A DNA stretch of 64,000 nucleotides from a virus. The notes below the pieces were generated by a model. That model saw only the letters and a list, made by a program, of their open reading frames with translations. It had not been told where the DNA came from and made no database searches. Position numbers and translations under genes: made by a program. Shown here piece by piece: positions 13,654-62,948 of this stretch (position 1 is the stretch's first letter; each line of letters begins with the position of its first letter). The stretch is taken from IMG/VR virus record IMGVR_UViG_3300021185_003122, positions 16,260 through 80,259 of that record; one strand, written 5' to 3'.

Positions 13654-14073
13654 CTATATCAACGAGGAATTTGGTTTAAGTTTAGTCCCCTCAAAGTCAA
13701 AATCTTCTATGCCATACTTATCATATTGATCTAGAGGAAGATTAATTAACTTAGCTACTTCTATATAGTCTACCGTTATTTCTTCATTCTCTTTTATAAG
13801 TTTAGTACTTATTAAGAATATATTATTACCTAGGAGAGACACCTTGCTATTAGGAGAGCTACTATGATTAGCATACCTTGCTATAGGAATAGATTCTATC
13901 CATCCATCATATAGAACTCTACCTTCTATAATAGGAATAAGATCCTTACTTAAATAAAATCCAATATTAGTTTCTGGAATGATGTTATAAGAGGCTAAAA
14001 GTCCTTTACCTCTTGGAGGAGTATCTCCAACTCTAAATAATACTTTTTGCTTGTTCAAAATGCTCTTCTTCAA
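13654..14073 (-). CDS. SET-domain protein (likely protein lysine methyltransferase)
   Basis: The 139-residue product shows the pieces of a SET domain: RGKGLLAS near residue 21, RYANHSSSPNS with Asn69-His70-Ser71, and ISTKLIKENEEITVDY ending in Asp102-Tyr103. These are the SAM-binding NHS and the catalytic EEITxDY motifs, so the protein most likely methylates lysine on a protein target. The frame has no ATG at its start; it opens with TTG at 14073 or TTG at 14058, inside the 3' end of the oxygenase gene, so the two are coupled. It lacks pre-SET and post-SET cysteine clusters. Confidence 0.8.
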   Translation of the reverse strand: MKKSILNKQKVLFRVGDTPPRGKGLLASYNIIPETNIGFYLSKDLIPIIEGRVLYDGWIESIPIARYANHSSSPNSKVSLLGNNIFLISTKLIKENEEITVDYIEVAKLINLPLDQYDKYGIEDFDFEGTKLKPNSSLI

Positions 14074-14623
14074 AAAATATAATTAAAGCATACCTGCTTC
14101 CTTCAGTAACTTCAGTTACTAAATGTTCATAAGTAGGAGGAAACATAATACAGTTACCTAATTCTCTTCCTGCATCTCCATAGGTAGTCATTTTCAAAGT
14201 ACCTCCATTATATTCATCTGAGTCAGATAATTGAGCAGAAAAAGACCTATAGATTATTTGGCTTCCATATTTGGAGAAGTCAACATGCTTTGTTAACTTA
14301 TGACCGATTCCATACTTCATTATTTTGATAGTAGGACAGGAGCTGATGCCCCAATCCTGTAATCTATCTACTATAAAATCTTTGAGTGTTTGGTCTTCGG
14401 TTTCAATCCAAGTAGCGTTACTATCCTTTCGCCATCTTACAATAAGAGTACCATCAGCATTAACTTCTTCTTCTCCAATCTCTCTATTGTACTTAGCTCT
14501 TCCTTGTTTGATAGTATCTACTAAAGTGAGAGTATCATGTCCCTCAACCTCTTTAGAATTATCATAAAAACTTCTTATATACGCACAGTCTTCTGGCGAG
14601 AATAAAACCTTTTGTTGAAACAT
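14033..14623 (-). CDS. 2OG-Fe(II) oxygenase, prolyl 4-hydroxylase-like
   Basis: The iron ligands are His113 and Asp115 (TKHVDF) and His167 (YEHLV), with Arg177 (EGSRYAL) as the 2-oxoglutarate ligand, in the order and spacing of the P4H family. Length (196) is typical of phage P4H-like oxygenases. The enzyme hydroxylates an amino acid, nucleic acid or lipid using oxygen and 2-oxoglutarate; the substrate is unknown. It overlaps the SET gene by 41 nt, so the pair may act on the same protein. Confidence 0.85.
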   Translation of the reverse strand: MFQQKVLFSPEDCAYIRSFYDNSKEVEGHDTLTLVDTIKQGRAKYNREIGEEEVNADGTLIVRWRKDSNATWIETEDQTLKDFIVDRLQDWGISSCPTIKIMKYGIGHKLTKHVDFSKYGSQIIYRSFSAQLSDSDEYNGGTLKMTTYGDAGRELGNCIMFPPTYEHLVTEVTEGSRYALIIFFEEEHFEQAKSII

Positions 14624-14769: not shown

Positions 14770-16986
14770 TTATACTAATTTATGATTTACTTTAAGGTCT
14801 TGTCTGTTGAATACTTCGTTAAGAGAGTCATTATCACCTAATCCTGATACTATATGACCATCAACTATAAAGTTGTGCTCACTTTCGAATAGCTTATCAC
14901 CATCTACTTCTAGGTTGTACCAGTTAGTAATATACATTTGCTCTACCTCTCCTACCTTATCTAGTGTAGTCCAGTTATTATCTACTAATACTGGGTGTTG
15001 AGGTTCTCCAATCATATTCTCTGTCTTAACTACATCTACTACTGCTTCAGTTGGGTGAACTAATGCTTTAGTAACTATACCTTCGACAAACTCTCCATTT
15101 CTAAATGATTTTACTTTATCTCCTTCTACTACTTCTCCAATTGGTTTAGTAGTTCCATCAAACATCTCTACTTGAGAATCGTAAGTAAAACATTTCCAGT
15201 TATGTACTAAGTATCCGTTAGCATAGAAATTATAGTTATCAGCAACGTCATCTAATCTATATACAGTTACTTCTCCTTCTTGAACTTCTATTCCTTTTAC
15301 TTCTACTTCGTTATTGTCTTTAGATACTAATTTATCTCCTTCTGTTAAGTCTTGAGCAACTGTCCAGCCTTTTCCAGCAACATATAATCTATGAAGAGGA
15401 GTAGAAATAATCTCATCTCCTTCTAGAGTTACCTTAATAACTTTATCTACTTGACTTGACTTAACACTTCCTACTGTAGCTGGCTCTCCTTCTCCTGTTT
15501 TTTCATTCCAAGATAAAAGCTCATCTCCTGATACTACATCTTCGATGTTTTTAGTATCTCCATTAGATAGAGTAATTACTGTACCTGCAGGGAAACAGTT
15601 GTGAGTTACAATCTTCAAGTGAGTGTTTTCATCTGCAAGGAAGAATGTATCTGTAGTTTCCATATCTACAACGTGTACATTATATGATCCGCTTAATACT
15701 TCAGCTTCATTACTAGCAATTGGAACTAATGAACCAGAACTATTAATTAATGAATGGACAGCTGGATCAACATCTACTAATGTTTCATACTTTAACTTAT
15801 TAGAACCTGACTCATGTACTAAGATAGCAGATGCTCCTGATATTCTAATAGGTCCACTTCCTGATGGTGTTAAGTTAAAGATAATTCCATATGGTAATGA
15901 AAGCTCTACGTTATTAATAAGAACTGAGCTAGTAATGTAAGAACCAGAAGGTAAATCTGAACCTGCATGTTCCCATTCTAGATATTCTGTAGCAACATCA
16001 CTATCAGGTGAACCTGAAATGAAATATGATTTAAATGTATCACTTACAGCTGCTCCTGAAATAGCTACGATAGTTCCATCATCTTTTACTAATTCTTCTT
16101 CTTCAAATATTCCACCGTAATCAGTTCCTACACCAAATACTGGAGTGTTAGTTGCAAATTCAAAGTAATGTTGATTACCAAATTGATGAGCTAATTGAGA
16201 GTCAGAAGCATCTGTAGAAGTTGGTTTTTCTAGAACTGCTTCAGTTTCTGTGTATGCAAGAATGCTTTGCGATAAAGCTGTACCATAAACAACACTGTAT
16301 AATCTAGTTGATACTGCTTTACTTCCAGAAACATTTTCGTAATAATTTTGAATTAATGAATTACCATCCTTAATTTCATCAATAAAATTAGTATATCTAT
16401 CATCTGAACCAGAAGTAGAATGACCAATCTTATAAAACTTTAATGGTTGGTACATAGTAGTAGTTGTATCTTTAACTACAATGTCAGGCATGTTAGATGA
16501 ATTAAAAGTTCTATCTAAAGTATCTACTACTCCTTCTGAAGAAGAATAGTAATAAGATGCTGCTGATCCTGAATCATTATTGTCATAAAATAATTCTAAT
16601 ATGTTTAGATTATTTTTTGCGTATGTACTGTCTAAGATTGCTGCTTCATCATATGCCAGTCTTAAAATAAACTTACTATCACTATCCGAAATAGATGTAG
16701 GATAGATAGTAGTTCCTTCTTCAATAGTTTTATTGAAGGTTAATGCTGAACCAGTATAGTCTGATGCTATACTAGATGAGAAGTGATTTACAAAGTCAGT
16801 TTGATGATCTTTGTAAACTACATGAATCTCAGTAATATTGTTTGAGTCCCATACTGGGTATAGGGATGAATAGTCGAAATGCGTAAAGGCAGCTGATGCA
16901 ATACCTGTATCAGTGTTTATTTCTAAAAGCCTTAGGTTATCCGAACTATCTGTTGCAAAGTCTGCTGAAAATAAGGTACCTTTCAT
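14770..16986 (-). CDS. Large beta-rich protein with two C-terminal Hint domains
   Basis: Residues 1 to about 460 are Ser/Thr/Gly-rich, probably beta, with YYYSSSEG and SGSPDS segments typical of phage virion or tail-fibre proteins; no named motif. From Cys464 follows a Hint domain: CFPAGTVITLSNGDTK (block A), STPLHRLYV (block B), and NYNFYANGYLVHN (block F, ending at Asn596). After Trp-Lys, a second Hint begins at Cys599: CFTYDSQVEMFDGTTK, a block-B QHPVLV and a block-F-like NFIVDGHIVSG. The residue after the first VHN is Trp rather than Cys/Ser/Thr, so protein splicing is unlikely; cleavage or crosslinking is possible. The second copy lacks the terminal Asn. Confidence 0.85.
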   Translation of the reverse strand: MKGTLFSADFATDSSDNLRLLEINTDTGIASAAFTHFDYSSLYPVWDSNNITEIHVVYKDHQTDFVNHFSSSIASDYTGSALTFNKTIEEGTTIYPTSISDSDSKFILRLAYDEAAILDSTYAKNNLNILELFYDNNDSGSAASYYYSSSEGVVDTLDRTFNSSNMPDIVVKDTTTTMYQPLKFYKIGHSTSGSDDRYTNFIDEIKDGNSLIQNYYENVSGSKAVSTRLYSVVYGTALSQSILAYTETEAVLEKPTSTDASDSQLAHQFGNQHYFEFATNTPVFGVGTDYGGIFEEEELVKDDGTIVAISGAAVSDTFKSYFISGSPDSDVATEYLEWEHAGSDLPSGSYITSSVLINNVELSLPYGIIFNLTPSGSGPIRISGASAILVHESGSNKLKYETLVDVDPAVHSLINSSGSLVPIASNEAEVLSGSYNVHVVDMETTDTFFLADENTHLKIVTHNCFPAGTVITLSNGDTKNIEDVVSGDELLSWNEKTGEGEPATVGSVKSSQVDKVIKVTLEGDEIISTPLHRLYVAGKGWTVAQDLTEGDKLVSKDNNEVEVKGIEVQEGEVTVYRLDDVADNYNFYANGYLVHNWKCFTYDSQVEMFDGTTKPIGEVVEGDKVKSFRNGEFVEGIVTKALVHPTEAVVDVVKTENMIGEPQHPVLVDNNWTTLDKVGEVEQMYITNWYNLEVDGDKLFESEHNFIVDGHIVSGLGDNDSLNEVFNRQDLKVNHKLV

Positions 16987-26714: not shown

Positions 26715-26887
26715 TATCCAAACAGCATAGTTTTAGAATTAGCTGAACCTTCTTCTAATATTTTATGCTCTACGATGGATCTGTTTCTTTTCCATTGTTC
26801 GATAGACCACTCTAATCTATCAGTAGTAAGCTCTATTTCTACCTTTTTTCCGTCAGCGTGAGTAAATTCTACTATGTACTTTCTCAT
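26714..26887 (-). CDS. Small conserved-looking protein, 57 aa
   Basis: The frame from ATG 26887 to TAA 26714 encodes a basic beta-alpha protein (MRKYIVEFTHADGKKVEIEL, then WSIEQWKRNRSIVEHKI). Its start overlaps the glycosyltransferase stop by four bases, which suggests translational coupling. No named domain; small proteins of this type recur in marine phages. Confidence 0.65.
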   Translation of the reverse strand: MRKYIVEFTHADGKKVEIELTTDRLEWSIEQWKRNRSIVEHKILEEGSANSKTMLFG

Positions 26888-28056
26888 AATTTAATTAAGT
26901 CTTCTGTATAAGTTTTAAGCTTATGTATAGTAATAAATAGATTTCCTAACTGGAATTTACCTTCTTGTCCACTATCATCTAATATTTGAGTAAGCTTCTG
27001 CATATATTCAAAATCAGTATTGTTAAATAGTTTACCATTTACTTCAACTATTACATCATTAGTACATAAGTGAGCTAGTGAATGAACTCTATCCTGTAAA
27101 TTAATTTTAGTGTTAGGTTGCTCCTCTAGAATATAACTAGCAAAGTCTGAGTCTATACATATACAGTCACCCCATGGCTCTAATGCATGAAGAAGATTCT
27201 TGTTAGAGTTTTTTATTCTTATACCTATGTTATACTTATTAGGAACTATAGGTTTCATTAACGCATCATGCATGACAAAATGACCCCACTTACGAATAAA
27301 GTTACGAGTTGATCTTTGATTCTGTGCTAGCCATTCCGGACTGTCTTCATATATGTTTTTAGCCTTATCCAAAGTATTTCTTCTACTTCCTCTAGAAGTC
27401 ATATGGTATACAAATCCATCCCATACTTGCTTAAACTTAACTCCGTTCAATTGAAATCTATTAAATATATCTGAGTCTTCTTTTGATTGAGGAGCATATA
27501 AAGGATCATGTCCTCCTATCTCTTGAAAGTCTTTTCTATAAAATGCCCATGGAGCAAATATACCTTCAGTTACTTTAGAAGCATTCTTCATAGAAGGTAA
27601 CTGCTTAAGGAACTCCTCCTCTATAAATTCTTCTGGTTCTACTCCTCCGCTCCATAGTATCTTCTCTGGACCGTCTGGGTGTAATGGAGGTTCTATTCTA
27701 GTCAAAGATACTATAGTCTTCTCTTCTATCTCTCTTTCAACAGCATCTAATGCTCCAGGAGCTAAATACATATCGGCATGATAAATCATAGCGATATCAT
27801 TTGTTGCTACATCATTAACTAATGTATCATATAGTATTGTATGTCCTAATCTATCTGGTCCTTCATTTCTATGAGCTTTAAATAATGGATCTTTATCCAT
27901 CATCTCTATACACCAATCCCAAGTACCGTCTGTCGAAGCATCATCAGCTACACAAATTTCTACCTCATGGTTACCTTGATTCTTTCTTATAGCATCATAA
28001 GCCCACTTAAGATACTTTAAATTGTTCCTTCCAGGTTGTATTATACTTATCTTCAT
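26884..28056 (-). CDS. Family 2 glycosyltransferase
   Basis: I start at ATG 28056 (MKISIIQPGRNN), because the longer frame would overlap the next gene by 86 nt. The GT2 fold is clear: VEICVADDASTDGTWDW (nucleotide-binding), IAMIYHADMYLAPGA (DxD equivalent HAD), and KEDSDIFNRFQLNG, the ED motif. The C-terminal 120 residues form an extra domain with no recognised family. It probably adds sugar in the surface-glycan cluster that runs to 38.3 kb. Confidence 0.85.
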   Translation of the reverse strand: MKISIIQPGRNNLKYLKWAYDAIRKNQGNHEVEICVADDASTDGTWDWCIEMMDKDPLFKAHRNEGPDRLGHTILYDTLVNDVATNDIAMIYHADMYLAPGALDAVEREIEEKTIVSLTRIEPPLHPDGPEKILWSGGVEPEEFIEEEFLKQLPSMKNASKVTEGIFAPWAFYRKDFQEIGGHDPLYAPQSKEDSDIFNRFQLNGVKFKQVWDGFVYHMTSRGSRRNTLDKAKNIYEDSPEWLAQNQRSTRNFIRKWGHFVMHDALMKPIVPNKYNIGIRIKNSNKNLLHALEPWGDCICIDSDFASYILEEQPNTKINLQDRVHSLAHLCTNDVIVEVNGKLFNNTDFEYMQKLTQILDDSGQEGKFQLGNLFITIHKLKTYTEDLIKL

Positions 28057-28942
28057 GGTAATATTTTTTATAATTGTCTTTAGCTGCTGCACTACAAAAG
28101 TTATAGTAAGCAGTATCTTCTTTTAATTTACGAATAATTTCTCTGGCTTCAGGAATATCTCCTAACTTTATTGTAGTATTAGGATGGCACTTCTGTTGAG
28201 TATCTAATCCTTCGTACCCTATACATGGTATACCTAAGTAAGCACAGTTAAGAGCAAATGTTCCTGCTGCATGAGTTCTCATCAAATGAACTGCATACTT
28301 AAAGTTATTGAGTTCTTTAATCCATTCAACCCAATTCATATAAGGAAGCTGGGTAATGCCTAGTTGAGCTTCTCCTTCTTGTCTTCTACCCATCATAGGG
28401 GAGTAGATTGGTTCTTCTAATGCAGAAGCTACTACAAATGAATCAAACCCTCCATACCAACTAACAAAGTTACCTCCTATCATTACTCCTTTTCTGTCAA
28501 CTCTAGGTAAATCTTTTATAGAGTCTTCTATCATAAGAGTAGGAAGTATTCTAACATCAGGATGATCTGTAATACCTTTGTAATATTCTTTATCTATTTC
28601 ATTATGAGCAAATAATATATCAGCTTTTCTGATAGTATTGTAATACCAAATTTGTTCGACTAAAGTATAGTCCTGAAAGCACCATTGAGGTCCTTCTTGC
28701 ATTATAGCTATCTTATCTGCATATGTTCTCATCTTATCGAATGTATTGTTAGCCATCCAACTACTTACATTCTTCTTAGGTATAACACACAATGCTAAGT
28801 CATATTTCTCAGAAGGAGTATGAGTATAAGGAAAACAATCAGCTTCTAAAGCACAAGGCCATGCTTGCTCTGTTCTCATCATTTCAAAGTTTCTGGGTAT
28901 CTTACCCATCATACCCATCTCAGTTACATAACATATTCTCAT
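28007..28942 (-). CDS. Glycosyltransferase (GT-B-like)
   Basis: Residues 1-150 form a first Rossmann-like domain and the C-terminal half contains GVMIGGNFVSWYGGFDSF and HAAGTFALNCAYLGIPCIGYEG, similar to the nucleotide-sugar-binding half of GT-B enzymes, in which a Gly-rich and a G-x-P-x-(I/V) segment bind the donor. The overall length (311) is short for the family. It starts four bases inside the epimerase gene end, so the cluster is tightly coupled. Confidence 0.7.
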   Translation of the reverse strand: MRICYVTEMGMMGKIPRNFEMMRTEQAWPCALEADCFPYTHTPSEKYDLALCVIPKKNVSSWMANNTFDKMRTYADKIAIMQEGPQWCFQDYTLVEQIWYYNTIRKADILFAHNEIDKEYYKGITDHPDVRILPTLMIEDSIKDLPRVDRKGVMIGGNFVSWYGGFDSFVVASALEEPIYSPMMGRRQEGEAQLGITQLPYMNWVEWIKELNNFKYAVHLMRTHAAGTFALNCAYLGIPCIGYEGLDTQQKCHPNTTIKLGDIPEAREIIRKLKEDTAYYNFCSAAAKDNYKKYYHEDKYNTTWKEQFKVS

Positions 28943-29781
28943 AATGACTTAATATAATCTATAATATTATATGTTGGTTTATATCCTAAGACATCTTTTG
29001 ATGTTGATATATCAGCTAGACCTTTTGGTCTATCTCCTCTCCTAGCATCTATAAATTCGAAATGATGATCGAATGCTGCTGCTATTTCTAAAACGCTATA
29101 GTCTTCACCAGTTCCTAATTGAAACTCCTGGTTACATATATTGTCTCCTGCTAGTACTAATCCATTTACTATATCATCTACATGAGTAAAATCTCTTCTT
29201 TGAGTTCCGTCTCCTGTAATGGTAAGAGGTCTTCCTTCTTCTCTTTGTCTCTTAAAAATATTAATTACTGATTGCCATTCATTATCCCAAGTGTCAGTTT
29301 TAGGACCATACACATTATAGAAGTAACATATGTTATATCTAATATCATACCAGTCTCCATATCCTTGTGTTAGTTTAGCTATCATTGATTTGAAAAAAGC
29401 ATAAGGTGAATGCATCTCACCAGGGTATGATAATTTAGTAGATGATCCTGCATACACTATCGGTATATTATTCTTTCTTATAGCTTCTAATAACTTAAAG
29501 CTTCCTAATATGTTATAAGTAAAAGCAGTAGATATATCATCAAATGAAGGAACTACTTTTGAATACTCTCCTAGGTGATAAACTAAATCATAATCATCTT
29601 GTAATGCTTCTATCGATTGAATGGTCGATATAGGATGATAATTTGCTCCTTCTATATGATTCTCAACTTTACCTGCAGAGTAATTATCCCAGCTGGTTAC
29701 TTTATGTCCATCTTTTACTAATCTTTCTATTAGATTAGATCCAACTGCTCCAGCTCCTCCGGTGACTAATATTTTTTTCAT
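28939..29781 (-). CDS. NAD-dependent sugar epimerase/dehydratase (SDR)
   Basis: The N-terminal GGAGAVGSN (residues 8-16) is the extended-SDR NAD-binding motif, and Tyr127-x3-Lys131 (SPYAFFKSM) is the catalytic pair. The structure resembles UDP-glucose 4-epimerase or dTDP-glucose 4,6-dehydratase relatives; the ending DVLGYKPTYNI is typical. It modifies a nucleotide sugar. It overlaps the glycosyltransferase before it by four bases. Confidence 0.9.
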   Translation of the reverse strand: MKKILVTGGAGAVGSNLIERLVKDGHKVTSWDNYSAGKVENHIEGANYHPISTIQSIEALQDDYDLVYHLGEYSKVVPSFDDISTAFTYNILGSFKLLEAIRKNNIPIVYAGSSTKLSYPGEMHSPYAFFKSMIAKLTQGYGDWYDIRYNICYFYNVYGPKTDTWDNEWQSVINIFKRQREEGRPLTITGDGTQRRDFTHVDDIVNGLVLAGDNICNQEFQLGTGEDYSVLEIAAAFDHHFEFIDARRGDRPKGLADISTSKDVLGYKPTYNIIDYIKSL

Positions 29782-29782
29782 C

Positions 29783-30634
29783 TTAAAAGTATTTTTTATC
29801 TCCGTTAGGAAATATGTATTTAGTATTTCTTATATGTGTTTCTTTAAAATTAGGATAAGGAGTAAGAATAGTATTCTCTTTTCCGTTTCCTAATACTGCA
29901 TCATTTATTCCGGCATGATAACCTAAATTAAATTTAGCATAATACTTTACTGCTAGTTGCTCTCTCAAAGACAATTTTAAATCAGCAAAGTTTGTTTTAT
30001 TTTTAAATAACTCTCCCCAATCAGTACCCTCTAAATCAAACTCACTATAGTAAAAGACTGGATAGTCTTTATACTTAGTAGCTTCATCATAAAGAAAGGT
30101 ATCAAATTCCCATCTACCTTTTAAGTTATTTATTCTACTACCAAAAAGTAAACACCCGTATACCTCACCATTAGTAATTTCATTTACTTTATCTATTTCC
30201 TCTTGAGTAAAGTACAATTTTGGAGTACAGTCTTCTTCTTTTAACTCTTCTGGAGTAAATCCAAATCTATGTAGTATCTTTTCAGCTAAAGGAACTTCGT
30301 TATCTAATTGAGCTCTAAAATGATCATTTACTCCTTCACCATTATATTCATCTACTAACTCTACATTAGGGTTATTATCATAAATTAAATTGATATAACT
30401 AGAAGGATCAAAGTCAGGACTATAAGACCAATTCATATAGTTTGGTGCAAGTGACTTTAATAACTTAGGAGAAGGAATTTTAAACTCTACTTCTGGGTAA
30501 TGTTTTTTAAGCACTTCAAATACTCCGCTAATGTTAGACCAATCGCCTATACTGTAGCTATGATATCTGGTAAAGAAAAATGTATCTTTAAGTTGATATC
30601 TTGGAGTATCTTTTTCGTACTTTATACCAATCAT
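29783..30634 (-). CDS. Hypothetical glycan-cluster protein, possible glycosyltransferase
   Basis: The 283-residue protein has an N-terminal TRYHSYSIGDWSNISGVFEV that recalls GT9-like (heptosyltransferase) glycine-rich loops, then a C-terminal VYGCLLFGSRINNLKG and KYYAKFNLGYHAGINDAV. I cannot assign it firmly. It lies between an epimerase and an aminotransferase gene, so a sugar-transfer role is likely. One-base overlap with the aminotransferase gene. Confidence 0.55.
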   Translation of the reverse strand: MIGIKYEKDTPRYQLKDTFFFTRYHSYSIGDWSNISGVFEVLKKHYPEVEFKIPSPKLLKSLAPNYMNWSYSPDFDPSSYINLIYDNNPNVELVDEYNGEGVNDHFRAQLDNEVPLAEKILHRFGFTPEELKEEDCTPKLYFTQEEIDKVNEITNGEVYGCLLFGSRINNLKGRWEFDTFLYDEATKYKDYPVFYYSEFDLEGTDWGELFKNKTNFADLKLSLREQLAVKYYAKFNLGYHAGINDAVLGNGKENTILTPYPNFKETHIRNTKYIFPNGDKKYF

Positions 30635-31743
30635 TAACCTTCATATTTGTTTACTACGTCAACAATCTTATTTCTATCTTCTTCTGTTACCCACCATCCA
30701 CAAGGAATGTTAATCATCTTTCTACTAAACTCATCTAATCCTGGTTGAGGTCTTCTATAGTTCTTAAAGACAGAGTACTCATCATTTCTAACATGTGCAA
30801 CGTCTGATGCTATATCATTAGCTTTAAGATAATCTTGAAACTTTCTTTTATCTTCTACTAAAATAGAATAAAGCCAGTAACTAGATGTTCCATTAGATAC
30901 TCTTCTAGGAATAACAACGTTAGGGTTAGAAATATTTTCATCATAGAACTTACCATTGTTAACATGTCCATCAATAACATTATCAATGTACTTTAAATTC
31001 TCTATTCCAATAGCTGCATTGACATTATTCATATGAAACTTATAACCAGATTCAGTTATATCTTGTTCCCATCTAGATGCTGGTGCTTCACCAGGAGGTG
31101 ATTTGTAATGTCTATCTAATCCAAACCATCTTAATTTTCTAGCTCTTTCAGCATCTGCTTCTGACTTACATGCAATTGCTCCTCCATCTACACATGTAAG
31201 ATGTTTGACTGCTTGAAAAGAAAAGCATACATAATCACTATGACTACCAATTCTTATATCTTTGTAAGTAGACCTTAATGCATGAGCTGCATCTTCAATA
31301 GTTTTGATACCATTAGCTTGAGCAAGATTATTTATTTCATCTAACTCACATGGCTGACCTGCCCAATGGACCATCATGATTGCTTTAGTATTGTCATCTA
31401 TCAACTCTTTGATAGAATTAACATCTATGTTTCCAGTATCAGGCTCTACATCAGCAAATCTAATCTCTACTCCCATATTATGAAATGGTTCATTAGTTGC
31501 CATACAAGTCATAGCTGTTGATATAACATTATCGCCTGGTTTAAAGTCACACATATGAGCTGCAAGAGTAAGAGCTGATGTTCCGCTATTAACTAATCTT
31601 ACGTTAGGGTTACCAATATACTCTCCAAATTGTTTTTCAAATTCATCAGAGTATTCTCCTTCGGTTAAGAAACCTGTGTCAAATACTTTCTGTACTACCT
31701 CCCCTATATTAGGAGGAGTATGTACTTTCATTAGTGGTATCAT
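30634..31743 (-). CDS. DegT/DnrJ/EryC1/StrS-type sugar aminotransferase
   Basis: The family signature is clear: LVNSGTSALTLAA (PLP phosphate), IEDAAHALRS (aspartate and histidine of the ring-binding site), and Lys180 in SFQAVKHLTCVDGGAI, the Schiff-base lysine. The enzyme transfers an amino group to a keto-sugar nucleotide, giving an amino sugar for the glycan. Its partners here are the SDR genes on either side. One-base overlaps with both neighbours show translational coupling. Confidence 0.93.
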   Translation of the reverse strand: MIPLMKVHTPPNIGEVVQKVFDTGFLTEGEYSDEFEKQFGEYIGNPNVRLVNSGTSALTLAAHMCDFKPGDNVISTAMTCMATNEPFHNMGVEIRFADVEPDTGNIDVNSIKELIDDNTKAIMMVHWAGQPCELDEINNLAQANGIKTIEDAAHALRSTYKDIRIGSHSDYVCFSFQAVKHLTCVDGGAIACKSEADAERARKLRWFGLDRHYKSPPGEAPASRWEQDITESGYKFHMNNVNAAIGIENLKYIDNVIDGHVNNGKFYDENISNPNVVIPRRVSNGTSSYWLYSILVEDKRKFQDYLKANDIASDVAHVRNDEYSVFKNYRRPQPGLDEFSRKMINIPCGWWVTEEDRNKIVDVVNKYEG

Positions 31744-32738
31744 TAATATTCGTATTTAGAGTTAACATTTAAAAAGTATTCTAACATTCTAATAATTCCA
31801 GTCTTAAAGTCAACTGTTGGAATTATATTTGTTTGAGCTACTACTTTATCTATATTAGGACATCTTCTTAATGGTTCATCAGAAGGATAGTCATCAGGGT
31901 ACGAAATAAGATCATAGTTAGGTTCTACACCTAATGATTCGTAAAACTTATCAGCTAACTCAATCATATTTAATTCAGGAGATGGATTCCCTACATTATA
32001 AATCTCACCATCTTTACCAGATAGAAGCAACTGAGTAATCATCGCTATACCATCACCAGCATAACAGAATGTTCTAGTCTGTTTACCATCTCCGTATATT
32101 TTAATTTTTTCTTGACGTAAATGAGCTCTCATCCAATTTGATAAAACTCTATTGTCATTGATTCCCATATAGGTTCCATAGAAGTTAAATGGTCTTACTA
32201 CCTTTACCGGTACATTATATTCGTTGTAATAAATGTTACATAATGTCTCTAGTACTTGTTTTCCTATATCATAACAACTTCTATTACTCATTGTAGGAAT
32301 AGCTCCTATGTAAGTCTCTTTAGTAGGAATAGCTCTAGGGTCTGGAGTACCATAAACCTCACTAGAACTAAACATAATAACTGATTCAACGTTTTTCTCT
32401 CTAACATAATCAAGTACGTTACGAGTACCTATGTACGATATATCCATCGTAAGTACAGGCTGCTTCATATACTTCTCAGGGCTAGCTATACCTGCACAGT
32501 TAATAACATAATCATATCTAGGAAGACTCATCAAAGCCTCTTTATTATTTATGTCATGTTCTGGATTAATTGAAGGATCGAAAGCTAAGTACTCTACTTT
32601 CAAATGTTCGAATAAGTCTACAAACCAATTTCCTAAGAAACCATTTGAACCTATTAGTAAAACTGTTTTATTTTTAAATTGATCTACATCTACTCTTGAA
32701 GTAATACTATTTAGATCTTGTTCATTTACGTAATTCAT
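31743..32738 (-). CDS. NAD-dependent sugar dehydratase/decarboxylase-like SDR
   Basis: GSNGFLGNWF at residues 30-39 is the NAD-binding loop and Tyr146-x3-Lys150 (SCYDIGK) the catalytic pair. RPFNFYGTYMGINDNRV and CYAGDGIAMI resemble UDP-glucuronate decarboxylase and related SDRs. With the neighbouring UDP-glucose-dehydrogenase-like enzyme it could make UDP-xylose or a similar sugar, an inference from context. It overlaps the acetyltransferase gene by 17 nt. Confidence 0.88.
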   Translation of the reverse strand: MNYVNEQDLNSITSRVDVDQFKNKTVLLIGSNGFLGNWFVDLFEHLKVEYLAFDPSINPEHDINNKEALMSLPRYDYVINCAGIASPEKYMKQPVLTMDISYIGTRNVLDYVREKNVESVIMFSSSEVYGTPDPRAIPTKETYIGAIPTMSNRSCYDIGKQVLETLCNIYYNEYNVPVKVVRPFNFYGTYMGINDNRVLSNWMRAHLRQEKIKIYGDGKQTRTFCYAGDGIAMITQLLLSGKDGEIYNVGNPSPELNMIELADKFYESLGVEPNYDLISYPDDYPSDEPLRRCPNIDKVVAQTNIIPTVDFKTGIIRMLEYFLNVNSKYEY

Positions 32739-33177
32739 AATCTAGTTGCATTATTATACTATTGCCGTTATCTGTAATATAGGAACTATTTAGAATAAAT
32801 CCTAATTTTTTATATAGAGAGTATGCAATTAAATTATGCTCCATAACCTCTAATTTAAATACTTTTATACCGTACTCTTCATTTAAGTACTTCATAAACT
32901 CTTCATAAGCAGGAACAGATAGTTTTTTACCTCTATAGTCTTTATGTATATCTAATCCTATATAACAAGAGTCCTCTGTCCAGTTAGAAGTTCTAAAATA
33001 ACCTATCGGTTTATTTTCTAGTTGATATATAAAAAAGGGATTGTTATTATTCTCAAACCATTTATAACTTTCCTGCAGAGTATATGTCTGAGGGTTATGT
33101 AACATTTGATGACATTCATTCCTTACTGTGTTGAAGAATGGAATATCTGTAACAGTTAACTTTCTTATATTATTCAC
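32722..33177 (-). CDS. GNAT acetyltransferase
   Basis: The 151-residue protein has the GNAT pattern: IGYFRTSNWTEDSCYIGLDI, then HKDYRGKKLSVPAY with the acetyl-CoA loop R-x-x-G-K-x-(L/G), and LEVMEHNLIAYSLYKKLGF, a typical end. It probably acetylates an amino sugar made by the aminotransferase gene upstream in the pathway. Eight-base overlap with the dehydrogenase gene. Confidence 0.85.
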   Translation of the reverse strand: MNNIRKLTVTDIPFFNTVRNECHQMLHNPQTYTLQESYKWFENNNNPFFIYQLENKPIGYFRTSNWTEDSCYIGLDIHKDYRGKKLSVPAYEEFMKYLNEEYGIKVFKLEVMEHNLIAYSLYKKLGFILNSSYITDNGNSIIMQLDYELRK

Positions 33178-33985
33178 TTACCGCTCTACTACCAATTTCG
33201 TTCCAATCAGCTTCAGGTCTAACCTCTAAATTAGTCTTCCATGCTGCTTTTAATACATGCATGTCTACATTTTGCTTATCTGCTAATGACATAAAAGCAT
33301 TGATATCTTTTGGAAAACAAGCACCACCAAATCCCATCTTGCCGTCTGGTCCTGGTACTTGCATATGGCTATCGCCTACTCTACCATCTGCTGCAAACCC
33401 ATGCATGGCCGTTCTCCAATCGATGCCCATAGTATCTGCTAACCTCTTATACTCATTAAGCAGCGATACTTTCGTGGCAAAGAAACAGTTGTTCATGTAC
33501 TTAATGAACTCTGCTGTGGTAGAATCTGTATGAATAAAATGTCTATTCATAAATCTACCCTCATATAATTTTTGTACTTTATCAGTTAATTCTTTATCAC
33601 CACCAAATATAATTCTTGCCTGCATCATCATATCTAACTTAGCTATTCTCTCAGTAAGGAACTCAGGACTAAATACTATATTTAGTTCTGGATATTTCTC
33701 TTGTAGAGACGCTGTAGTACCTGGTAGTACCGTTGATTTAATAATGTATATAGGGCCTTTCCTTGCATGTGTAAAGACTGAGTCTATATATTTTGTATCC
33801 TGTGTACCGTCCTTAAACATAGGAGTAGGCACTGCTACAAATATAAAGTCTGCTGTATGTACTTCTTCTAAAGTGTTGAATGATCTCTTAGGATCTGTGT
33901 CGTAAATTAAAACTTTGTTTGATAAAGAGAATGCAAATGCTTGTGCTTCTCCAACAAAACCATTACCAATAATACCTACTTTCAT
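33170..33985 (-). CDS. UDP-glucose/GDP-mannose dehydrogenase family, short form
   Basis: The N-terminal GIIGNGFVGEAQAF is the NAD-binding loop; IKSTVLPGT and SPEFLTERIA are family motifs, and Cys223 in GGACFPKDINAF is the catalytic cysteine. At 271 residues it is much shorter than the usual 420-450, stopping soon after the middle domain; it lacks the C-terminal UDP-binding domain. It may still oxidise a nucleotide sugar, or act with another partner. It overlaps the next gene by one base. Confidence 0.88.
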   Translation of the reverse strand: MKVGIIGNGFVGEAQAFAFSLSNKVLIYDTDPKRSFNTLEEVHTADFIFVAVPTPMFKDGTQDTKYIDSVFTHARKGPIYIIKSTVLPGTTASLQEKYPELNIVFSPEFLTERIAKLDMMMQARIIFGGDKELTDKVQKLYEGRFMNRHFIHTDSTTAEFIKYMNNCFFATKVSLLNEYKRLADTMGIDWRTAMHGFAADGRVGDSHMQVPGPDGKMGFGGACFPKDINAFMSLADKQNVDMHVLKAAWKTNLEVRPEADWNEIGSRAVSE

Positions 33986-34512
33986 TAAAACATATCTGAT
34001 TTAGTTCGTGTAACTTTCTTCTTTTCTACTTTAGTAAAGAAGGTTCTTCTTATAATATAAGAAATATTTTCTAATTTAAATACAGATGCATCAGTTTTAA
34101 TTTGATTTATATACTGATCAATTGCATCGTTGTAATCTCTAATTATAATAACTCCACCTTTAGACATTCTAGGTAATAATGTCTTTACACCTTCATAGTT
34201 ATTATCTCCCAAATCTAACTGGGCTAATCCTATTGCTGGTAATGATAGAGGAGAGCTTCCTAATCGGTGTTTGATATAATCTCCTTTCTTATCTAATCTA
34301 TTTATAGACTCATTACATAAATCTTGAGCTTTCTGCCATATACCTTGATTGCCTCCTTCAAAAAGATCTACATAGATACTATCTCTTCTTTTAATTTCTT
34401 CAGATAACATTAGTTTGAATATCTCCCTAGCATCTCTACCAGTTCCAAATCCTAGGTCAACAAATATTCCATCAATGTTATCAGCCAGTTGGGCAATCTC
34501 TACTAGTTTCAT
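33985..34512 (-). CDS. SAM-dependent methyltransferase-like protein
   Basis: GIFVDLGFGTGRDA near residue 15 is a class I SAM-binding loop (D-x-G-x-G-x-G). Acidic and hydrophobic blocks follow, with IGLAQLDLGDNNYEGVKTLLP and GGVIIIRDYNDA, resembling sugar or macrocin O-methyltransferase-like enzymes. Basic C-terminus (KVEKKKVTRTKS). It belongs to the glycan cluster. A CTATTTAT motif lies before the ATG. Confidence 0.75.
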   Translation of the reverse strand: MKLVEIAQLADNIDGIFVDLGFGTGRDAREIFKLMLSEEIKRRDSIYVDLFEGGNQGIWQKAQDLCNESINRLDKKGDYIKHRLGSSPLSLPAIGLAQLDLGDNNYEGVKTLLPRMSKGGVIIIRDYNDAIDQYINQIKTDASVFKLENISYIIRRTFFTKVEKKKVTRTKSDMF

Positions 34513-34516
34513 GTAT

Positions 34517-34525
34517 ATAAATAGT
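34517..34525 (-). promoter_or_regulatory. CTATTTAT motif (class 2, possible late promoter)
   Basis: ACTATTTAT on the minus strand, 4 nt before the ATG at 34512, overlapping the last base of the upstream gene. Confidence 0.4.
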
Positions 34526-35154
34526 TACGTTAAAGTATCGTAATAAGCATTTTGTTTCTCCTGTTTATCTATTTCTTTTGGATGGTAAAGAGATAGTTCT
34601 TCTTTAGCAGGTAATGGTGCATAAGTCTTAAAGCCGTCTAATACTTCATGGACTTTATTCTTCCATCTAATCTCTGGTTTGTTTTTCCAAATACGCCATT
34701 GATAGTCTGGATAGTTAACCCATCCTTTATCATCTACTTTCCAACCCCATTTAGTTATATGCTCTTCAGTTAAACCTTCTACTGTATTAACTCTAGGAAT
34801 TAAATAAACATCATTGTCAGGATTAGATTCTAGTATTATAGGTAGAGCTGTAAGAAGAGATTTATGAGGAAATTCATCTGCATCTATTTGAAAGATATAA
34901 TCACCATTGCAGTAATCAGTAAGCTGATTTTTCCAGTTAGCAAAATGACCATTGAAGTCTAAGCCTCTCCAAAACTGTATGTTTGGGTACTTATTTTGTT
35001 TCGTAAGCCAGGCAGCTATTTCTTCACTACCGTTTTTTTGATCATACAAGATAACTATTTCATCCTGCTGTCTTTTGTTCTTTCTTAAAAGTTCAACAAG
35101 CTTCTGAATTTCTACGAATTCATTACATACTGTTATTGCATAACTAATTACCAT
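34525..35154 (-). CDS. Family 2 glycosyltransferase
   Basis: A short GT-A enzyme (209 residues). ISYAITVCNEFVEIQKLVEL is the N-terminal nucleotide-binding strand, and GDYIFQIDADEFPHKSL carries the D-x-D metal motif. HWANWKNQLTDYC-like sections precede it. It overlaps the next gene by 11 nt. It probably adds one sugar in the glycan. Confidence 0.85.
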   Translation of the reverse strand: MVISYAITVCNEFVEIQKLVELLRKNKRQQDEIVILYDQKNGSEEIAAWLTKQNKYPNIQFWRGLDFNGHFANWKNQLTDYCNGDYIFQIDADEFPHKSLLTALPIILESNPDNDVYLIPRVNTVEGLTEEHITKWGWKVDDKGWVNYPDYQWRIWKNKPEIRWKNKVHEVLDGFKTYAPLPAKEELSLYHPKEIDKQEKQNAYYDTLT

Positions 35155-35605
35155 AGAAATCTATAACCTCTAATGCATCCATAAAGTCTTTTGGAGCAAA
35201 CTTCTTAGCTTGCTTAACATCCATTTTAAATGTTTGACCCTCTGGGAATTTACCTGATTTAATTTCTTCTTCAGTTAACGGAATAGCTTTAACTGCAGAC
35301 CATTGCCAGTCTTTAGTAGATGTTCCATCAACAAACACCATTCCTTTTTCTGGAAGAGTGATAGTAGCAGGAAACCATATTCTGCCTTCCTTATCTTTAT
35401 GCATTAAGTCTTTATATAGTTCAGGAGATGTTTCTAATAAGTCTTGTACTGGTTTAGAACCTTCTGTCATAAGTGTAGAAGTTGTATAACCACTACCAAA
35501 ACATAACCATGTTTTTATCTCTTGATTGTCTTGATTGAAGGTCTGTTCATAACAAGCATTGCTACCGAAAGGACCTTCTACTAATTGATCTTTTTCTAAT
35601 TTCAT
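35144..35605 (-). CDS. Hypothetical protein, 153 aa
   Basis: A soluble alpha/beta protein with CFGSGYTTSTLMTEGSKPV and WFPATITLPEKGMVFVDG. No catalytic motif. It is tightly packed in the glycan cluster (11-nt and 4-nt overlaps). Conserved in feel but not recognised; could be an accessory protein of the glycosyltransferases or a structural protein. Confidence 0.6.
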   Translation of the reverse strand: MKLEKDQLVEGPFGSNACYEQTFNQDNQEIKTWLCFGSGYTTSTLMTEGSKPVQDLLETSPELYKDLMHKDKEGRIWFPATITLPEKGMVFVDGTSTKDWQWSAVKAIPLTEEEIKSGKFPEGQTFKMDVKQAKKFAPKDFMDALEVIDFYGN

Positions 35606-36873
35606 ACCTTTGTAAGTTTAGGAAGTTCTAGTTCAGGCATTTTTAATTCTACCTTAACTGCAAATTCTGGTACGTACTTATCATTGTAACCTTTAAGTAT
35701 CTCTACCATTTTTTCAAACGAAAAGTTTTTCTTATTTACGTTCTTTAATTGTTTAGCAGGTCTAACATAATCTTTATACTTCTTAAATACTTCTGTTAGT
35801 GCTTTACCAACTTGAGCATCGTCAGGAGTAAACCATTTAGACTGTTCAAGTATCATATCTTTTACTGCTGCTGATTTATCTACATTAGTTAACGAACCTC
35901 CTATTAGTACTGCTTTGTCTTTATCTAAAAAGTCTACCTGACCAGACCATGCTGATGCTATAATAGGTTTACCTGTTAAGCTAAACTCTAGTAACGGTCT
36001 ACCAAATCCTTCTCCTTTTGTAAAGCTAATCATAGCTTTTACTTTAGGATTATTGTATAACTGATTAATTTGTTCGTCAGTTAATTCTCCTGTTACTAGG
36101 TAGATGTTAGGTAACTTACCTTTAACTGTCTTTCTAATGCCATCTATCTTATCTAGTATGCGTTCCTTATCTAATAAAGATGAACCTACCTGTTGTGTTT
36201 TAAGAATAAGTCCAGGAGCCTTTTGTTTGTTCTTAAACGTTTCTAGGAATGCCTTTATCATATAGCCTACATTCTTTCTATCCTGTCCCATATTACCTTG
36301 CATCCAGTGTCCAACAAATAGATAATTAAAGCTTTCTTCTACTGATGATAAATCAAATGCAGTTGTAGATTCAGCAAAGTATTTAGTTAAATCTGCTCCT
36401 TCTAATAGTATTTCTATTGGCTTATCTAACGTTATAGTCTTTACTACCTTATCAGAGTTATTTTCTTTCATTTCATATCGTGTACCTTTAAACACATCTA
36501 ATGAATGTTTAGAAGAGGTTAGAATAAGATCCATTCTATTACAACCTTCCAACCAAGTCTGGTGTACTAATGTTGATTCCATTCCAGCTGTAACACCTAT
36601 GTTATAATTACCAACGGCTTGGAATTCATTAGGTACAGTAATCTGTATCCACAAATCAGGCTTCTTTGGTAGTTGAGGTATAATTGTGCTTGATAGTAAA
36701 TCCTCTTTATGGTCAGCTAAATAACCAAATCTAGTATTACCCCATCTCTGTGATAAAGTCTTTACTTCGTATTTATCTAATGCTATGAGAGCTTTAACGA
36801 AATCTCTTGCTCTTGCTCCATAACCGGAATATGTATCTAAAGGGCAGCTTACAACTGCTAATGGTTTGTTCAT
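35602..36873 (-). CDS. Glycosyltransferase, GT4-like
   Basis: The 423-residue protein has an N-terminal KPLAVVSCPLDTYSGYGARARDF loop and the C-terminal GT4 signature: NPKVKAMISFTKGEGFGRPLLEFSLTGKPIIASA, with the E-G-x-G-x-P-x-x-E-(A/F) pattern that binds the nucleotide. Two Rossmann domains are expected. Donor and acceptor unknown. Two bases separate it from the next GT4 gene, with which it forms a pair. Confidence 0.88.
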   Translation of the reverse strand: MNKPLAVVSCPLDTYSGYGARARDFVKALIALDKYEVKTLSQRWGNTRFGYLADHKEDLLSSTIIPQLPKKPDLWIQITVPNEFQAVGNYNIGVTAGMESTLVHQTWLEGCNRMDLILTSSKHSLDVFKGTRYEMKENNSDKVVKTITLDKPIEILLEGADLTKYFAESTTAFDLSSVEESFNYLFVGHWMQGNMGQDRKNVGYMIKAFLETFKNKQKAPGLILKTQQVGSSLLDKERILDKIDGIRKTVKGKLPNIYLVTGELTDEQINQLYNNPKVKAMISFTKGEGFGRPLLEFSLTGKPIIASAWSGQVDFLDKDKAVLIGGSLTNVDKSAAVKDMILEQSKWFTPDDAQVGKALTEVFKKYKDYVRPAKQLKNVNKKNFSFEKMVEILKGYNDKYVPEFAVKVELKMPELELPKLTKV

Positions 36874-36874
36874 T

Positions 36875-38317
36875 TTAATAACCTATTAATTTATGTTTAA
36901 CTCGTTTTGAAGGTCTAGGTCCTATCTTTTCTATTTCATAGATTGGTCTTGGAACAAAGTTATCAAAACCTTTCTCAACAGACTCTATAATCCTTTTACA
37001 CATGTAGGGTGAAGACATATTAGATTCGTCTGAAAGAACCCATTCATGTCCTTTACTACCTCTTCTGTCTCTTTCTTCTGGACCTAAATCATATATAGTT
37101 TTTATAGCATCAGCTACATCTTCAGGTTTACATCTATCGTCAAATATGTATGGAGTTAATGGTGAACCCATCATTGACATATTAGATGGAAATACTGGTA
37201 CTGCCCACTCACCATGCTCTTTATATGTACCCCTATGGTTAGATGGTATATCAGCTGAAGGTGTAAACCATTCGCCGTTATCATCTAAGAATTTAACCTG
37301 ATCTTGCATACCTCCTGTTACGTTAGGTATAATCATAGTACCAGTCATCATAGCTTCTGTTAGCGAAAGTCCCCATCCTTCATTAGACGACATAAGAACA
37401 TTTACATCTGCTATGTTATATAGTAAGTTCATTTGCTCTGGTGAAAGCTTTTCAGTATTAAAGAATACATTTACATATTCAGGATCACAGAATGTATCTT
37501 TTATAGCTTTCAAATCAGTTCCGTGTTGAGATGATATCTCAGTTTTCATAACTAAAGCACACTTCTTTGCTTTTTCTTTACCTATCATCTCACAGAATTG
37601 AGTATAAGCTAATACAACGTCTCCAGGATGTTTACGTTGGATGTTTCTTGAGTTAAAGAATACTACATACTCTATATCTCTTCCGTTAAACATACTCTTT
37701 TTAAACTCTTGAAGTTTCTCAAAGTGAGGGTTATCTTTTTTAATTGGAAAGAAGTACTTAGGGTTTATACCATGAGGAACATATTCTAATACTTTATTCT
37801 TTGCATCATCACCTAATACTAATTCATTAATTAGTTTAGTCTGTTTAGAGATAGCCATTAAAGTATCTACTGAGTTATAATAATGTTTGTTGTACATAGG
37901 AGCAGGAAACTCATCCCATATGTTTAACCACATGATTGGAATTTTGCTTCTTATCTCTCTTTCTATATCAAATAACCAAATCCAATATCTAGGATCAGTA
38001 AAAATAAAAATAGCATCAGGTTTCTGCTGCTTTATCAACGTTCTAATAGCTGTAGCATCTCCATATCCATTGCTTGGCATGACCATAACACTAGCGTCTG
38101 GAGTACCAATAGTTTTATCTACATCAGCAGATATGTCAAATACTTTTCCTACTTCAGGATGCTTCAATGCTGCTCCTAAATTAAACCAATTGAACCTATG
38201 AGAGGTTCCTACAACTATTTCTCTAGCCATAGTTGCTACTCCGGAATGCATTCGTATATCATCACAGAGAAGTAATATTTTTTTCCTTTCTGCTTTTGGA
38301 ATATAACCTTCTATCAT
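36875..38317 (-). CDS. Glycosyltransferase, GT4-like
   Basis: A 480-residue GT-B enzyme. KILLLCDDIRMHSGVATMAR gives the N-terminal nucleotide-fold loop; YVPHGINPKYFFPI follows at the domain junction, and DVNVLMSSNEGWGLSLTEAM is the C-terminal GT4 signature with E-G-W-G-L-x-x-x-E-A. It starts next to a ribbon-helix-helix gene. It forms a pair with the previous GT4 gene and may elongate the glycan. Confidence 0.9.
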   Translation of the reverse strand: MIEGYIPKAERKKILLLCDDIRMHSGVATMAREIVVGTSHRFNWFNLGAALKHPEVGKVFDISADVDKTIGTPDASVMVMPSNGYGDATAIRTLIKQQKPDAIFIFTDPRYWIWLFDIEREIRSKIPIMWLNIWDEFPAPMYNKHYYNSVDTLMAISKQTKLINELVLGDDAKNKVLEYVPHGINPKYFFPIKKDNPHFEKLQEFKKSMFNGRDIEYVVFFNSRNIQRKHPGDVVLAYTQFCEMIGKEKAKKCALVMKTEISSQHGTDLKAIKDTFCDPEYVNVFFNTEKLSPEQMNLLYNIADVNVLMSSNEGWGLSLTEAMMTGTMIIPNVTGGMQDQVKFLDDNGEWFTPSADIPSNHRGTYKEHGEWAVPVFPSNMSMMGSPLTPYIFDDRCKPEDVADAIKTIYDLGPEERDRRGSKGHEWVLSDESNMSSPYMCKRIIESVEKGFDNFVPRPIYEIEKIGPRPSKRVKHKLIGY

Positions 38318-42841: not shown

Positions 42842-42850
42842 ATAAATAGT
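42842..42850 (-). promoter_or_regulatory. CTATTTAT motif (class 2, possible late promoter)
   Basis: ACTATTTAT on the minus strand, 4 nt before the ATG at 42837; it overlaps the stop of the outer-membrane gene. Confidence 0.4.
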
Positions 42851-57414: not shown

Positions 57415-57443
57415 AATATACGAAATTAATTTAAATTAAACAA
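57415..57443 (-). promoter_or_regulatory. Class 1 promoter (TTG-N20-TATATT) before metK
   Basis: TTG, 20 nt ending TTCG, TATATTACAG on the minus strand; the box ends 6 nt before ATG 57408, so the leader is very short. It lies in the end of the halogenase gene. Confidence 0.65.
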
Positions 57444-62621: not shown

Positions 62622-62948
62622 CTAATCTTCTTCAAATCCTACTGGTGGTTCCTGTTCTACTACTGCAAGTACTTCTCTATCAGAGGCAATATAGTACTCT
62701 TCTCCTTCAAAGTCTATTCTTAACGTACCAATCTTAGGTACTAAAATTATATCCCCTACTTTACAAGAACGTACGTGATTAATAACTCCTGTAGCAGTCC
62801 AAGCTCCTGGTCCTACTGCTAGTACTTGGCCCATCTCAGGCTTTTCTTTTCCCATATCAGGGATAACTATTGAACCATATGTCTGTTCACCTTCATCAAT
62901 AGGTTTTAACAGTATACGATCGTTAGTTGGTTTTAATTGTTTTGCCAT
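62622..62948 (-). CDS. groES: Co-chaperonin GroES
   Basis: The 108-residue protein begins LKPTNDRILLKPIDEGEQTY and contains VLAVGPGAWTATG and KVGDIILVPKIGTLRIDFEG, all typical GroES motifs; the mobile-loop region (residues about 18-32) replaces the usual GGI(V/L) with GSIVIPDM. Longer than the common 95-97 residues. It caps GroEL. Promoter at 62968-62996. Confidence 0.95.
   Translation of the reverse strand: MAKQLKPTNDRILLKPIDEGEQTYGSIVIPDMGKEKPEMGQVLAVGPGAWTATGVINHVRSCKVGDIILVPKIGTLRIDFEGEEYYIASDREVLAVVEQEPPVGFEED

What the first reader, a model, noticed from the sequence alone, without database searches (positions are those of the whole stretch)
14770..16986. Tandem Hint domains at the end of a large virion-like protein
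Two Hint modules follow each other (Cys464-Asn596 and Cys599 to about residue 715). The first has blocks A, B and F with a terminal His-Asn; the second has the Cys and His but no terminal Asn. The junction residue is Trp, so true splicing is unlikely. Autocleavage, release of the C-terminal part, or ester crosslinking of a capsid or fibre are possible. Tandem copies of different completeness could be a two-step processing device.
Basis: partly seen in the sequence, partly recalled or inferred. Interest (0 to 1): 0.8.

Follow-up and report, generated by a model that had tools for sequence, protein, structure and literature searches.

The report
Phage ATP-grasp protein with Hint array
A large flavobacterial-type phage makes a protein whose front half has the fold of a peptide-joining (ATP-grasp) enzyme and whose back half is a row of self-cutting Hint domains; it belongs to a family, unreported as far as I could find, in which the number of Hint domains varies and the last one is swapped between phages.

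Summary
In detail: the 738-aa minus-strand ORF at 14770-16986 ends in two Hint domains, C464-N596 and C599 to about 716. It is also incomplete. Residues ~292-463 are a third, Cys-less Hint that ends in His-Asn directly before Cys464. Residues 1-285 are not a recognisable virion protein: they fold like the circularly permuted ATP-grasp of glutathione and glutathionylspermidine synthetases.

Seventy-nine distinct relatives, all from uncultured virus contigs, keep the ATP-grasp and Cys-less Hint. They carry 0, 1, 2 or 3 further active Hints. In the first active Hint, the Cys, block-B His and terminal His-Asn are present in all 63 proteins checked. The last Hint is an exchangeable cassette of at least four clades. 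All 70 proteins scored with a His-Asn tail have a Lys in it (57 directly after the Asn).

Best reading: a self-processing precursor, with thioester chemistry at Cys464, Asn cyclisation at 596 and cleavage at Cys599. True splicing is unlikely. Virion location is undecided: composition is tail-protein-like, but no virion family matches, and in relatives the gene sits beside 2OG-Fe(II) oxygenases. No cleavage or activity was measured.

The parts
14770..16986 (-). whole ORF, 738 aa, ATP-grasp-fold/Hint precursor; start MKGTLF conserved in relatives
16132..16986 (-). residues 1-285: circularly permuted ATP-grasp domain; invariant D9, E22-x-N24, D26, K59, R109, D119, D168, K172, K186, R228
   Evidence: model pLDDT 91; top 26 PDB matches all glutathione/glutathionylspermidine/trypanothione synthetases and relatives, Z 7.1-10.4; invariants in 50 relatives
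15598..16113 (-). residues 292-463: Hint0, degenerate Hint; G292 at the Cys1 position, no block-B His, ends H462-N463
   Evidence: Z 16-17 to Prp8 inteins; hhalign to Hint1 prob 97%, E 2.9e-11, ATP-grasp control under 1%; family Hint HMM down to 6e-9 in relatives
15199..15597 (-). residues 464-596: Hint1, A-type BIL-like; C464, T529xxH532, H595-N596
15193..15198 (-). residues 597-598 (Trp-Lys): linker between Hint1 and Hint2
   Evidence: linker statistics
14839..15192 (-). residues 599-716: Hint2, Vint-type; C599 and block-B His, no terminal Asn (VSGLGDN instead)
   Evidence: Pfam Vint 2.3e-15; Vint clade of 8 in domain tree, support 100/100; alignment
14770..14838 (-). residues 717-738 and stop: C-terminal tail of the Vint-type ending (relatives: ...GDNELLNxTFKRQ)
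   Evidence: low confidence in model
14033..14623 (-). neighbouring gene: 2OG-Fe(II) oxygenase, next gene downstream (recurrent partner in relatives)
   Evidence: Pfam PF13640 8.6e-8; clustering
13654..14073 (-). neighbouring gene: SET-domain protein (a SET-like cluster is found near the gene in 21 of 57 loci)
   Evidence: Pfam PF00856 7.7e-8

Best explanation
A phage self-processing precursor. An ATP-grasp-fold domain (1-285) is followed by a Cys-less Hint (292-463), then an active A-type bacterial-intein-like Hint (464-596), then a Vint-type Hint (599-716). Inferred chemistry: Cys464 attacks the N463 carbonyl (N-S acyl shift), giving a thioester on the ATP-grasp/Hint0 unit that is hydrolysed or passed to an amine. 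Asn596 cyclises and breaks 596|597. Cys599 breaks 598|599. Because Hint0 also ends in an invariant Asn at the same bond (463|464), it may assist C-terminal cleavage there. Product: mature 1-463 plus freed Hint domains. No splicing. Shown: predicted fold, homology, conserved catalytic residues, purifying selection. Inferred: that cleavage happens, its order, and what the mature protein does.
For: Hint1 has every A-type BIL sequence feature: Cys1, block-B T/H and His-Asn are invariant or nearly so in 63 proteins, and its model matches BIL2 of Tetrahymena BUBL1 (Z 22) and the Clostridium thermocellum BIL (Z 21). Hint0. ATP-grasp. dN/dS is about 0.05-0.25 for most domains in pairs of relatives; one last Hint has zero amino-acid change at dS 0.05. 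A-type BILs cleave at their C-terminus through Asn; B-type BILs lack the C-terminal motif and cleave N-terminally (PMC7765530).
Against: No cleavage has been observed anywhere in this family. Only 1-23 residues follow the last Hint, so C-terminal release has no obvious product. Nine of 79 distinct relatives (near-identical pairs included) have no active Hint at all, so processing is not essential to the N-terminal part. One pair shows a relaxed last Hint (w 0.69, L093/L094), though a cassette swap may inflate that value. Why two or three Hints would be needed is unexplained.
Confidence: 0.55

Rival explanations
1. Lysine-conjugation device, working like BIL2 of Tetrahymena BUBL1. The thioester at the first active Cys is attacked by a lysine epsilon-amine (the conserved C-terminal Lys, or a Lys of another protein), joining the ATP-grasp/Hint0 unit to that Lys by an isopeptide bond.
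For: The closest solved structure to Hint1 is BIL2, reported to form an isopeptide bond to a Lys epsilon-amine and to conjugate ubl4 to other proteins (PMC8616854). All 70 distinct relatives scored with an HN tail have a Lys in the tail (57 at +1), against 8% C-terminal Lys in neighbouring genes; only 1 of 67 Hint0-Hint1 linkers holds a Lys.
Against: Relatives are not independent samples. A single free Lys is an odd conjugation target, and a residue after Asn may be kept only so that Asn can cyclise. There is no ubiquitin-like domain. P0001 itself ends in the Vint form, although its tail also holds Lys.
Confidence: 0.2
2. Virion protein with a self-processing C-terminus: a tail-associated protein whose Hints trim or crosslink it during assembly. 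Not exclusive of the best explanation.
For: Residues 1-455 have tail-protein composition (S+T 18-20%, K+R 5-7%) against neighbouring genes (11.6%, 12.8%) in 54 members. The gene is on the same strand as, and 10-40 kb upstream of, the gp6 baseplate gene in 19 of 24 contigs. Vint-type Hints end proteins in other contigs, one of which matches a virion-structural PHROG; another Hint sits inside an S74 tail fibre.
Against: No virion family matches residues 1-460. An ATP-grasp fold with invariant putative active-site residues is unusual in a capsid or tail. The gene lies in a variable cassette of enzymes beside 2OG-Fe(II) oxygenases, not in the tail cluster. Composition is indirect, and same-strand position is weak where most genes share a strand.
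Confidence: 0.3
3. Peptide-excision device: Asn cyclisation of one Hint and the thioester of the next free the short linker between them as a (cyclic) peptide, modified by the ATP-grasp and the nearby oxygenases.
For: Linkers of 0-12 residues vary in length and sequence, some with a P-F/Y-G-A-G-R start. 2OG-Fe(II) oxygenase, radical SAM and SET genes lie nearby.
Against: Many linkers are 0-2 residues (44 of 67 Hint0-Hint1 linkers; two residues, Trp-Lys, between Hint1 and Hint2 here). Pro- and Gly-rich composition fits plain flexible linkers.
Confidence: 0.05
4. Mobile decoration: Hint cassettes spread among phage genes by recombination with little benefit to the carrier.
For: Copy number 0-3 and exchange of the last Hint: one stretch of about 490 bp is 93-94% identical between otherwise diverged genes, from near the linker to the stop codon.
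Against: Purifying selection on most Hints and invariant catalytic residues. No homing endonuclease domain was found in the window protein.
Confidence: 0.1

Closest known systems
BIL2 of the BUBL1 polyubiquitin locus, Tetrahymena thermophila (PDB 6y75, 6tmm)
   Same: Closest solved structure to Hint1 (Z 22, 25% identity); Cys1, block-B His, terminal Asn; two BIL domains in one polyprotein
   Different: Flanked by ubiquitin-like domains in a ciliate; here an ATP-grasp fold and a Cys-less Hint precede it, in a phage
A-type bacterial intein-like domains (C. thermocellum BIL, 2lwy)
   Same: All sequence features of Hint1; variable +1 residue
   Different: Here in tandem, preceded by a degenerate Hint that ends in the Asn next to Cys1, with almost nothing after the last Hint
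Vint domain / B-type BIL (PF14623; 8r2c)
   Same: Hint2: Cys1 and block-B His, no terminal Asn
   Different: Stands as the last, exchangeable member of an array rather than beside a VWA domain
Glutathionylspermidine/glutathione synthetase-type ATP-grasp (2io9, 2hgs, 7uk8)
   Same: Predicted fold of residues 1-285; D and E-x-N at the N-terminus as in the permuted ATP-grasp
   Different: About 10% identity; substrate unknown; region shorter; fused to Hints; tail-protein-like composition
R2K ATP-grasp peptide ligases of jumbo phages (PMC7824862)
   Same: A phage ATP-grasp proposed to modify proteins
   Different: Described as a different ATP-grasp clade; no Hint domain is mentioned for them in the passages read

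Membership tests
A-type BIL domain (Hint1) | Hint fold | tested here: met
   Z 21-22 to BIL structures
A-type BIL domain (Hint1) | N-terminal Cys, block-B T-x-x-H, C-terminal His-Asn | tested here: met
   63 of 63 first Hints for Cys, His and HN; Thr 98%
A-type BIL domain (Hint1) | no conserved Ser/Thr/Cys at +1 | tested here: met
   +1 is R, F, K, Y, L, I, Q or W in 44 linkers after active Hints
A-type BIL domain (Hint1) | autocatalytic cleavage | not testable with these tools
   needs expression
Intein | Ser/Thr/Cys at +1 for canonical splicing | tested here: not met
   W597 here; none in relatives after active Hints
Intein | interrupts a conserved host protein whose C-extein continues it | tested here: not met
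   nothing but further Hints or a 1-23 residue tail follows
Vint / B-type BIL (Hint2) | Cys1 and Hint profile above cut-off, no terminal Asn | tested here: met
   PF14623 57 bits against cut-off 27; SGLGDN ending
Permuted ATP-grasp of the glutathione/glutathionylspermidine synthetase type | fold | tested here: met
   top 26 rows, Z 7.1-10.4, 183-232 residues aligned; predicted model, middling Z
Permuted ATP-grasp of the glutathione/glutathionylspermidine synthetase type | Mg-binding D ... E-x-N | tested here: inconclusive
   D9, E22, N24 invariant; the aligned ranges fit an equivalence to Gss D318/E330/N332, residue roles from own knowledge; no residue-level superposition seen
Permuted ATP-grasp of the glutathione/glutathionylspermidine synthetase type | recognisable by sequence profile | tested here: inconclusive
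   only weak Pfam hits in one or two members (ATPgrasp_ST 0.014, GSP_synth 0.05); no PDB profile hit
Permuted ATP-grasp of the glutathione/glutathionylspermidine synthetase type | ATP-dependent amide ligation | not testable with these tools
   needs assay
BUBL-type locus | ubiquitin-like domains flanking the BIL | tested here: not met
   flanks are Hint0/ATP-grasp and Hint2
Polymorphic toxin (PT-HINT pretoxin) | a toxin domain C-terminal to the Hint | tested here: not met
   only a 1-23 residue tail follows
Virion structural protein | homology to a virion family outside the Hints | tested here: inconclusive
   no virion match in PHROGs or Pfam for 1-460; absence of a match does not exclude
Virion structural protein | presence in particles | not testable with these tools
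   needs proteomics

The most novel reading that the evidence does not exclude
An ATP-independent protein-conjugation system of phages. The Hint array activates the C-terminus of the ATP-grasp/Hint0 unit as a thioester and passes it to a lysine (the conserved C-terminal Lys or a Lys on a partner) through an isopeptide bond. The exchangeable last Hint sets the acceptor, and the ATP-grasp domain acts on the same tail.
Probability: 0.15. Interest if true: 0.88.

Novelty: new variant of a known kind. Interest (0 to 1): 0.62.

Why it matters
Hint domains are known as inteins, hedgehog and Vint domains, and as BIL domains. Here a phage family joins an ATP-grasp fold to a countable, swappable array of them, keeps a Cys-less Hint with an invariant terminal Asn in front, and ends in a conserved lysine. 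If the chemistry is confirmed, it gives natural tandem Hints for studying how cleavage and acyl transfer are ordered. It would also be a candidate phage counterpart of the ciliate Hint-driven conjugation. It also puts a name on a family that was not found in about 50,000 deposited phage records.

Tried and rejected
Direct relatives from the single protein: none by peptide patterns; reached instead through the baseplate gene of the same phage. Bacterial genomes: two pattern scans gave no relative; these need near-exact short peptides, so distant homologues are not excluded. Deposited phages and plasmids: no match to residues 1-464. The N-terminal domain has no confident sequence-profile match, so the ATP-grasp call rests on predicted structure and motif. 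Foldseek alone gave one hit under 1e-3. Splicing rejected (non-nucleophilic +1). Pretoxin rejected (no C-terminal toxin). Two-step device as a general rule rejected (0-3 Hints). Literature: no open-access paper holds both 'ATP-grasp' and 'Hint domain'; subscription papers were not searched. The 2OG-Fe(II) clustering score (22 of 48 within 3 kb, 1.9 expected) overstates significance, because those genes cluster with each other; 15 of the 16 non-redundant genomes that have such hits, counted by hand from the same output, still show one within 3 kb. Of three genomes with no active Hint, none had one nearby (too few to conclude).

Full report
1. The observation. The reading frame is on the minus strand, 16986 to 14770, 738 aa. 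Hint1 runs C464 to N596, with T529-x-x-H532 and H595-N596. Hint2 runs from C599 to about 716, with Cys and block-B His but no terminal Asn. Pfam, PDB-sequence and structure comparisons agree.

2. What was missed. (a) Residues ~292-463 are a third Hint without catalytic Cys or block-B His. In the full-length model (mean pLDDT 82), VIA-align places 292-459 on Prp8 inteins at Z 16-17. hhalign of its profile with Hint1 gives 97% probability and E 2.9e-11, against under 1% for the ATP-grasp control. The family's own Hint HMM finds it in relatives at E down to 6e-9. It ends H462-N463 immediately before C464. N463 is invariant in 60 aligned relatives and position 292 is nearly always Gly. (b) Residues 1-285 modelled alone (pLDDT 91) match glutathione, glutathionylspermidine and trypanothione synthetases and YgiC/YjfC in all of the first 26 rows (Z 7.1-10.4), followed by tubulin tyrosine ligase, RimK and Ddl: the ATP-grasp superfamily, in the circularly permuted form. 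D9, E22-x-N24, K172, K186 and R228 are invariant. Z is middling and identity about 10%, so the fold is supported but activity is not shown.

3. The family. The phage is a relative of Flavobacterium phage immuto (gp6 57% identical). Scans of viral contigs gave 79 distinct relatives, the window protein included. All keep the N-terminal domain and Hint0 (one is cut at its 5' end). The number of active Hints is 0 in 9, 1 in 30, 2 in 36 and 3 in 4. First Hints: Cys1, block-B His and HN in 63 of 63. Later Hints: Cys1 and block-B His in 40 of 40, HN in 80%; the rest are the Vint-type ending seen in the window and one truncated member. In the Hint-domain tree the last Hint falls in at least four clades although some of the first Hints beside it are close relatives of each other. 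L095/L098 and L131 share a last Hint at 93-94% DNA identity from near the linker exactly to the stop codon, in otherwise diverged genes. So the last Hint is an exchangeable cassette. dN/dS is mostly 0.05-0.25.

4. The tail. In the 70 distinct proteins scored with an HN tail, the residues after the HN always include a Lys; 49 tails are exactly K and 57 start with K (one of the 70, L250, is scored from an upstream HN, but it too ends in Lys). Neighbouring genes end in Lys in 8%. When Hint0 is followed by an active Hint, the linker almost never holds a Lys (1 of 67). The relatives are not independent, but the tail differs in sequence among Hint0-only members and still holds Lys. BIL2 of Tetrahymena BUBL1, the nearest structure to Hint1, is reported to make isopeptide bonds to lysine (PMC8616854). 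This is a lead, not a demonstration.

5. Setting. In the window the gene is followed by a 2OG-Fe(II) oxygenase and a SET-domain gene. In relatives, 2OG-Fe(II) genes lie within 3 kb far more often than expected (22 of 48 hits, 1.9 expected; these genes also cluster with each other). The gene is on the same strand as the gp6 baseplate gene and 10-40 kb upstream of it in 19 of 24 contigs, 19 kb in this record. Residues 1-455 have tail-protein composition in 54 members, unlike neighbouring enzymes. These two lines point different ways on virion location, and I leave it open.

6. Mechanism. The most likely course is Cys464 thioester formation, Asn596 cyclisation and Cys599 cleavage, with no ligation of flanks, as known for A-type and B-type BIL domains (PMC7765530). 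That any cleavage occurs in this protein is inferred. What the ATP-grasp domain joins is unknown; an amide-ligase role is the ordinary expectation of that fold.

7. Novelty. The domains are known; the combination, the variable and swappable array, and the family itself I did not find in deposited phages, plasmids, bacterial scans or open-access text. The bacterial scans are pattern-based, and subscription literature was not searched.

Noticed in passing
window 57426-58220: A tryptophan-halogenase-like protein of 264 aa matching only the C-terminal half of the family (Pfam 217-414 of 458, E 3.3e-43); possibly a fragment or a split gene.
   Followed up: partly
window 60961-62619: A full-length phage-encoded GroEL chaperonin (PHROG E 1.3e-165), next to a small 108-aa ORF at 62622-62948.
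   Followed up: no
window 26884-38317: A run of sugar-nucleotide and glycosyltransferase-like genes (epimerase, aminotransferase, UDP-glucose-dehydrogenase-like, glycosyltransferases), judged by reading the translations only.
   Followed up: no
window 42850-44727: A 625-aa ORF with a long Thr/Ser/Glu/Asp-rich low-complexity stretch and an open overlapping frame; no Pfam match.
   Followed up: no
L259:3-3917 and L261: A 1305-aa phage protein matching a virion-structural PHROG ends in the same Vint-type Hint (SGLGDN tail) as the window protein.
   Followed up: partly
L302:3-4721 and L303: A tail-fibre protein carries a Hint domain upstream of its S74 self-cleaving chaperone, so one fibre may hold two self-processing domains.
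   Followed up: partly
L296:1518-3956: An RCC1-repeat (beta-propeller) phage protein ends in a Hint with HNAACK at the C-terminus.
   Followed up: no
L166, L168, L140, L164, L171 (Hint0-Hint1 linkers): Linkers of about 8-12 residues start with P-F/Y-G-A/V-G-R after the Asn, followed by variable residues; the motif is unexplained.
   Followed up: no
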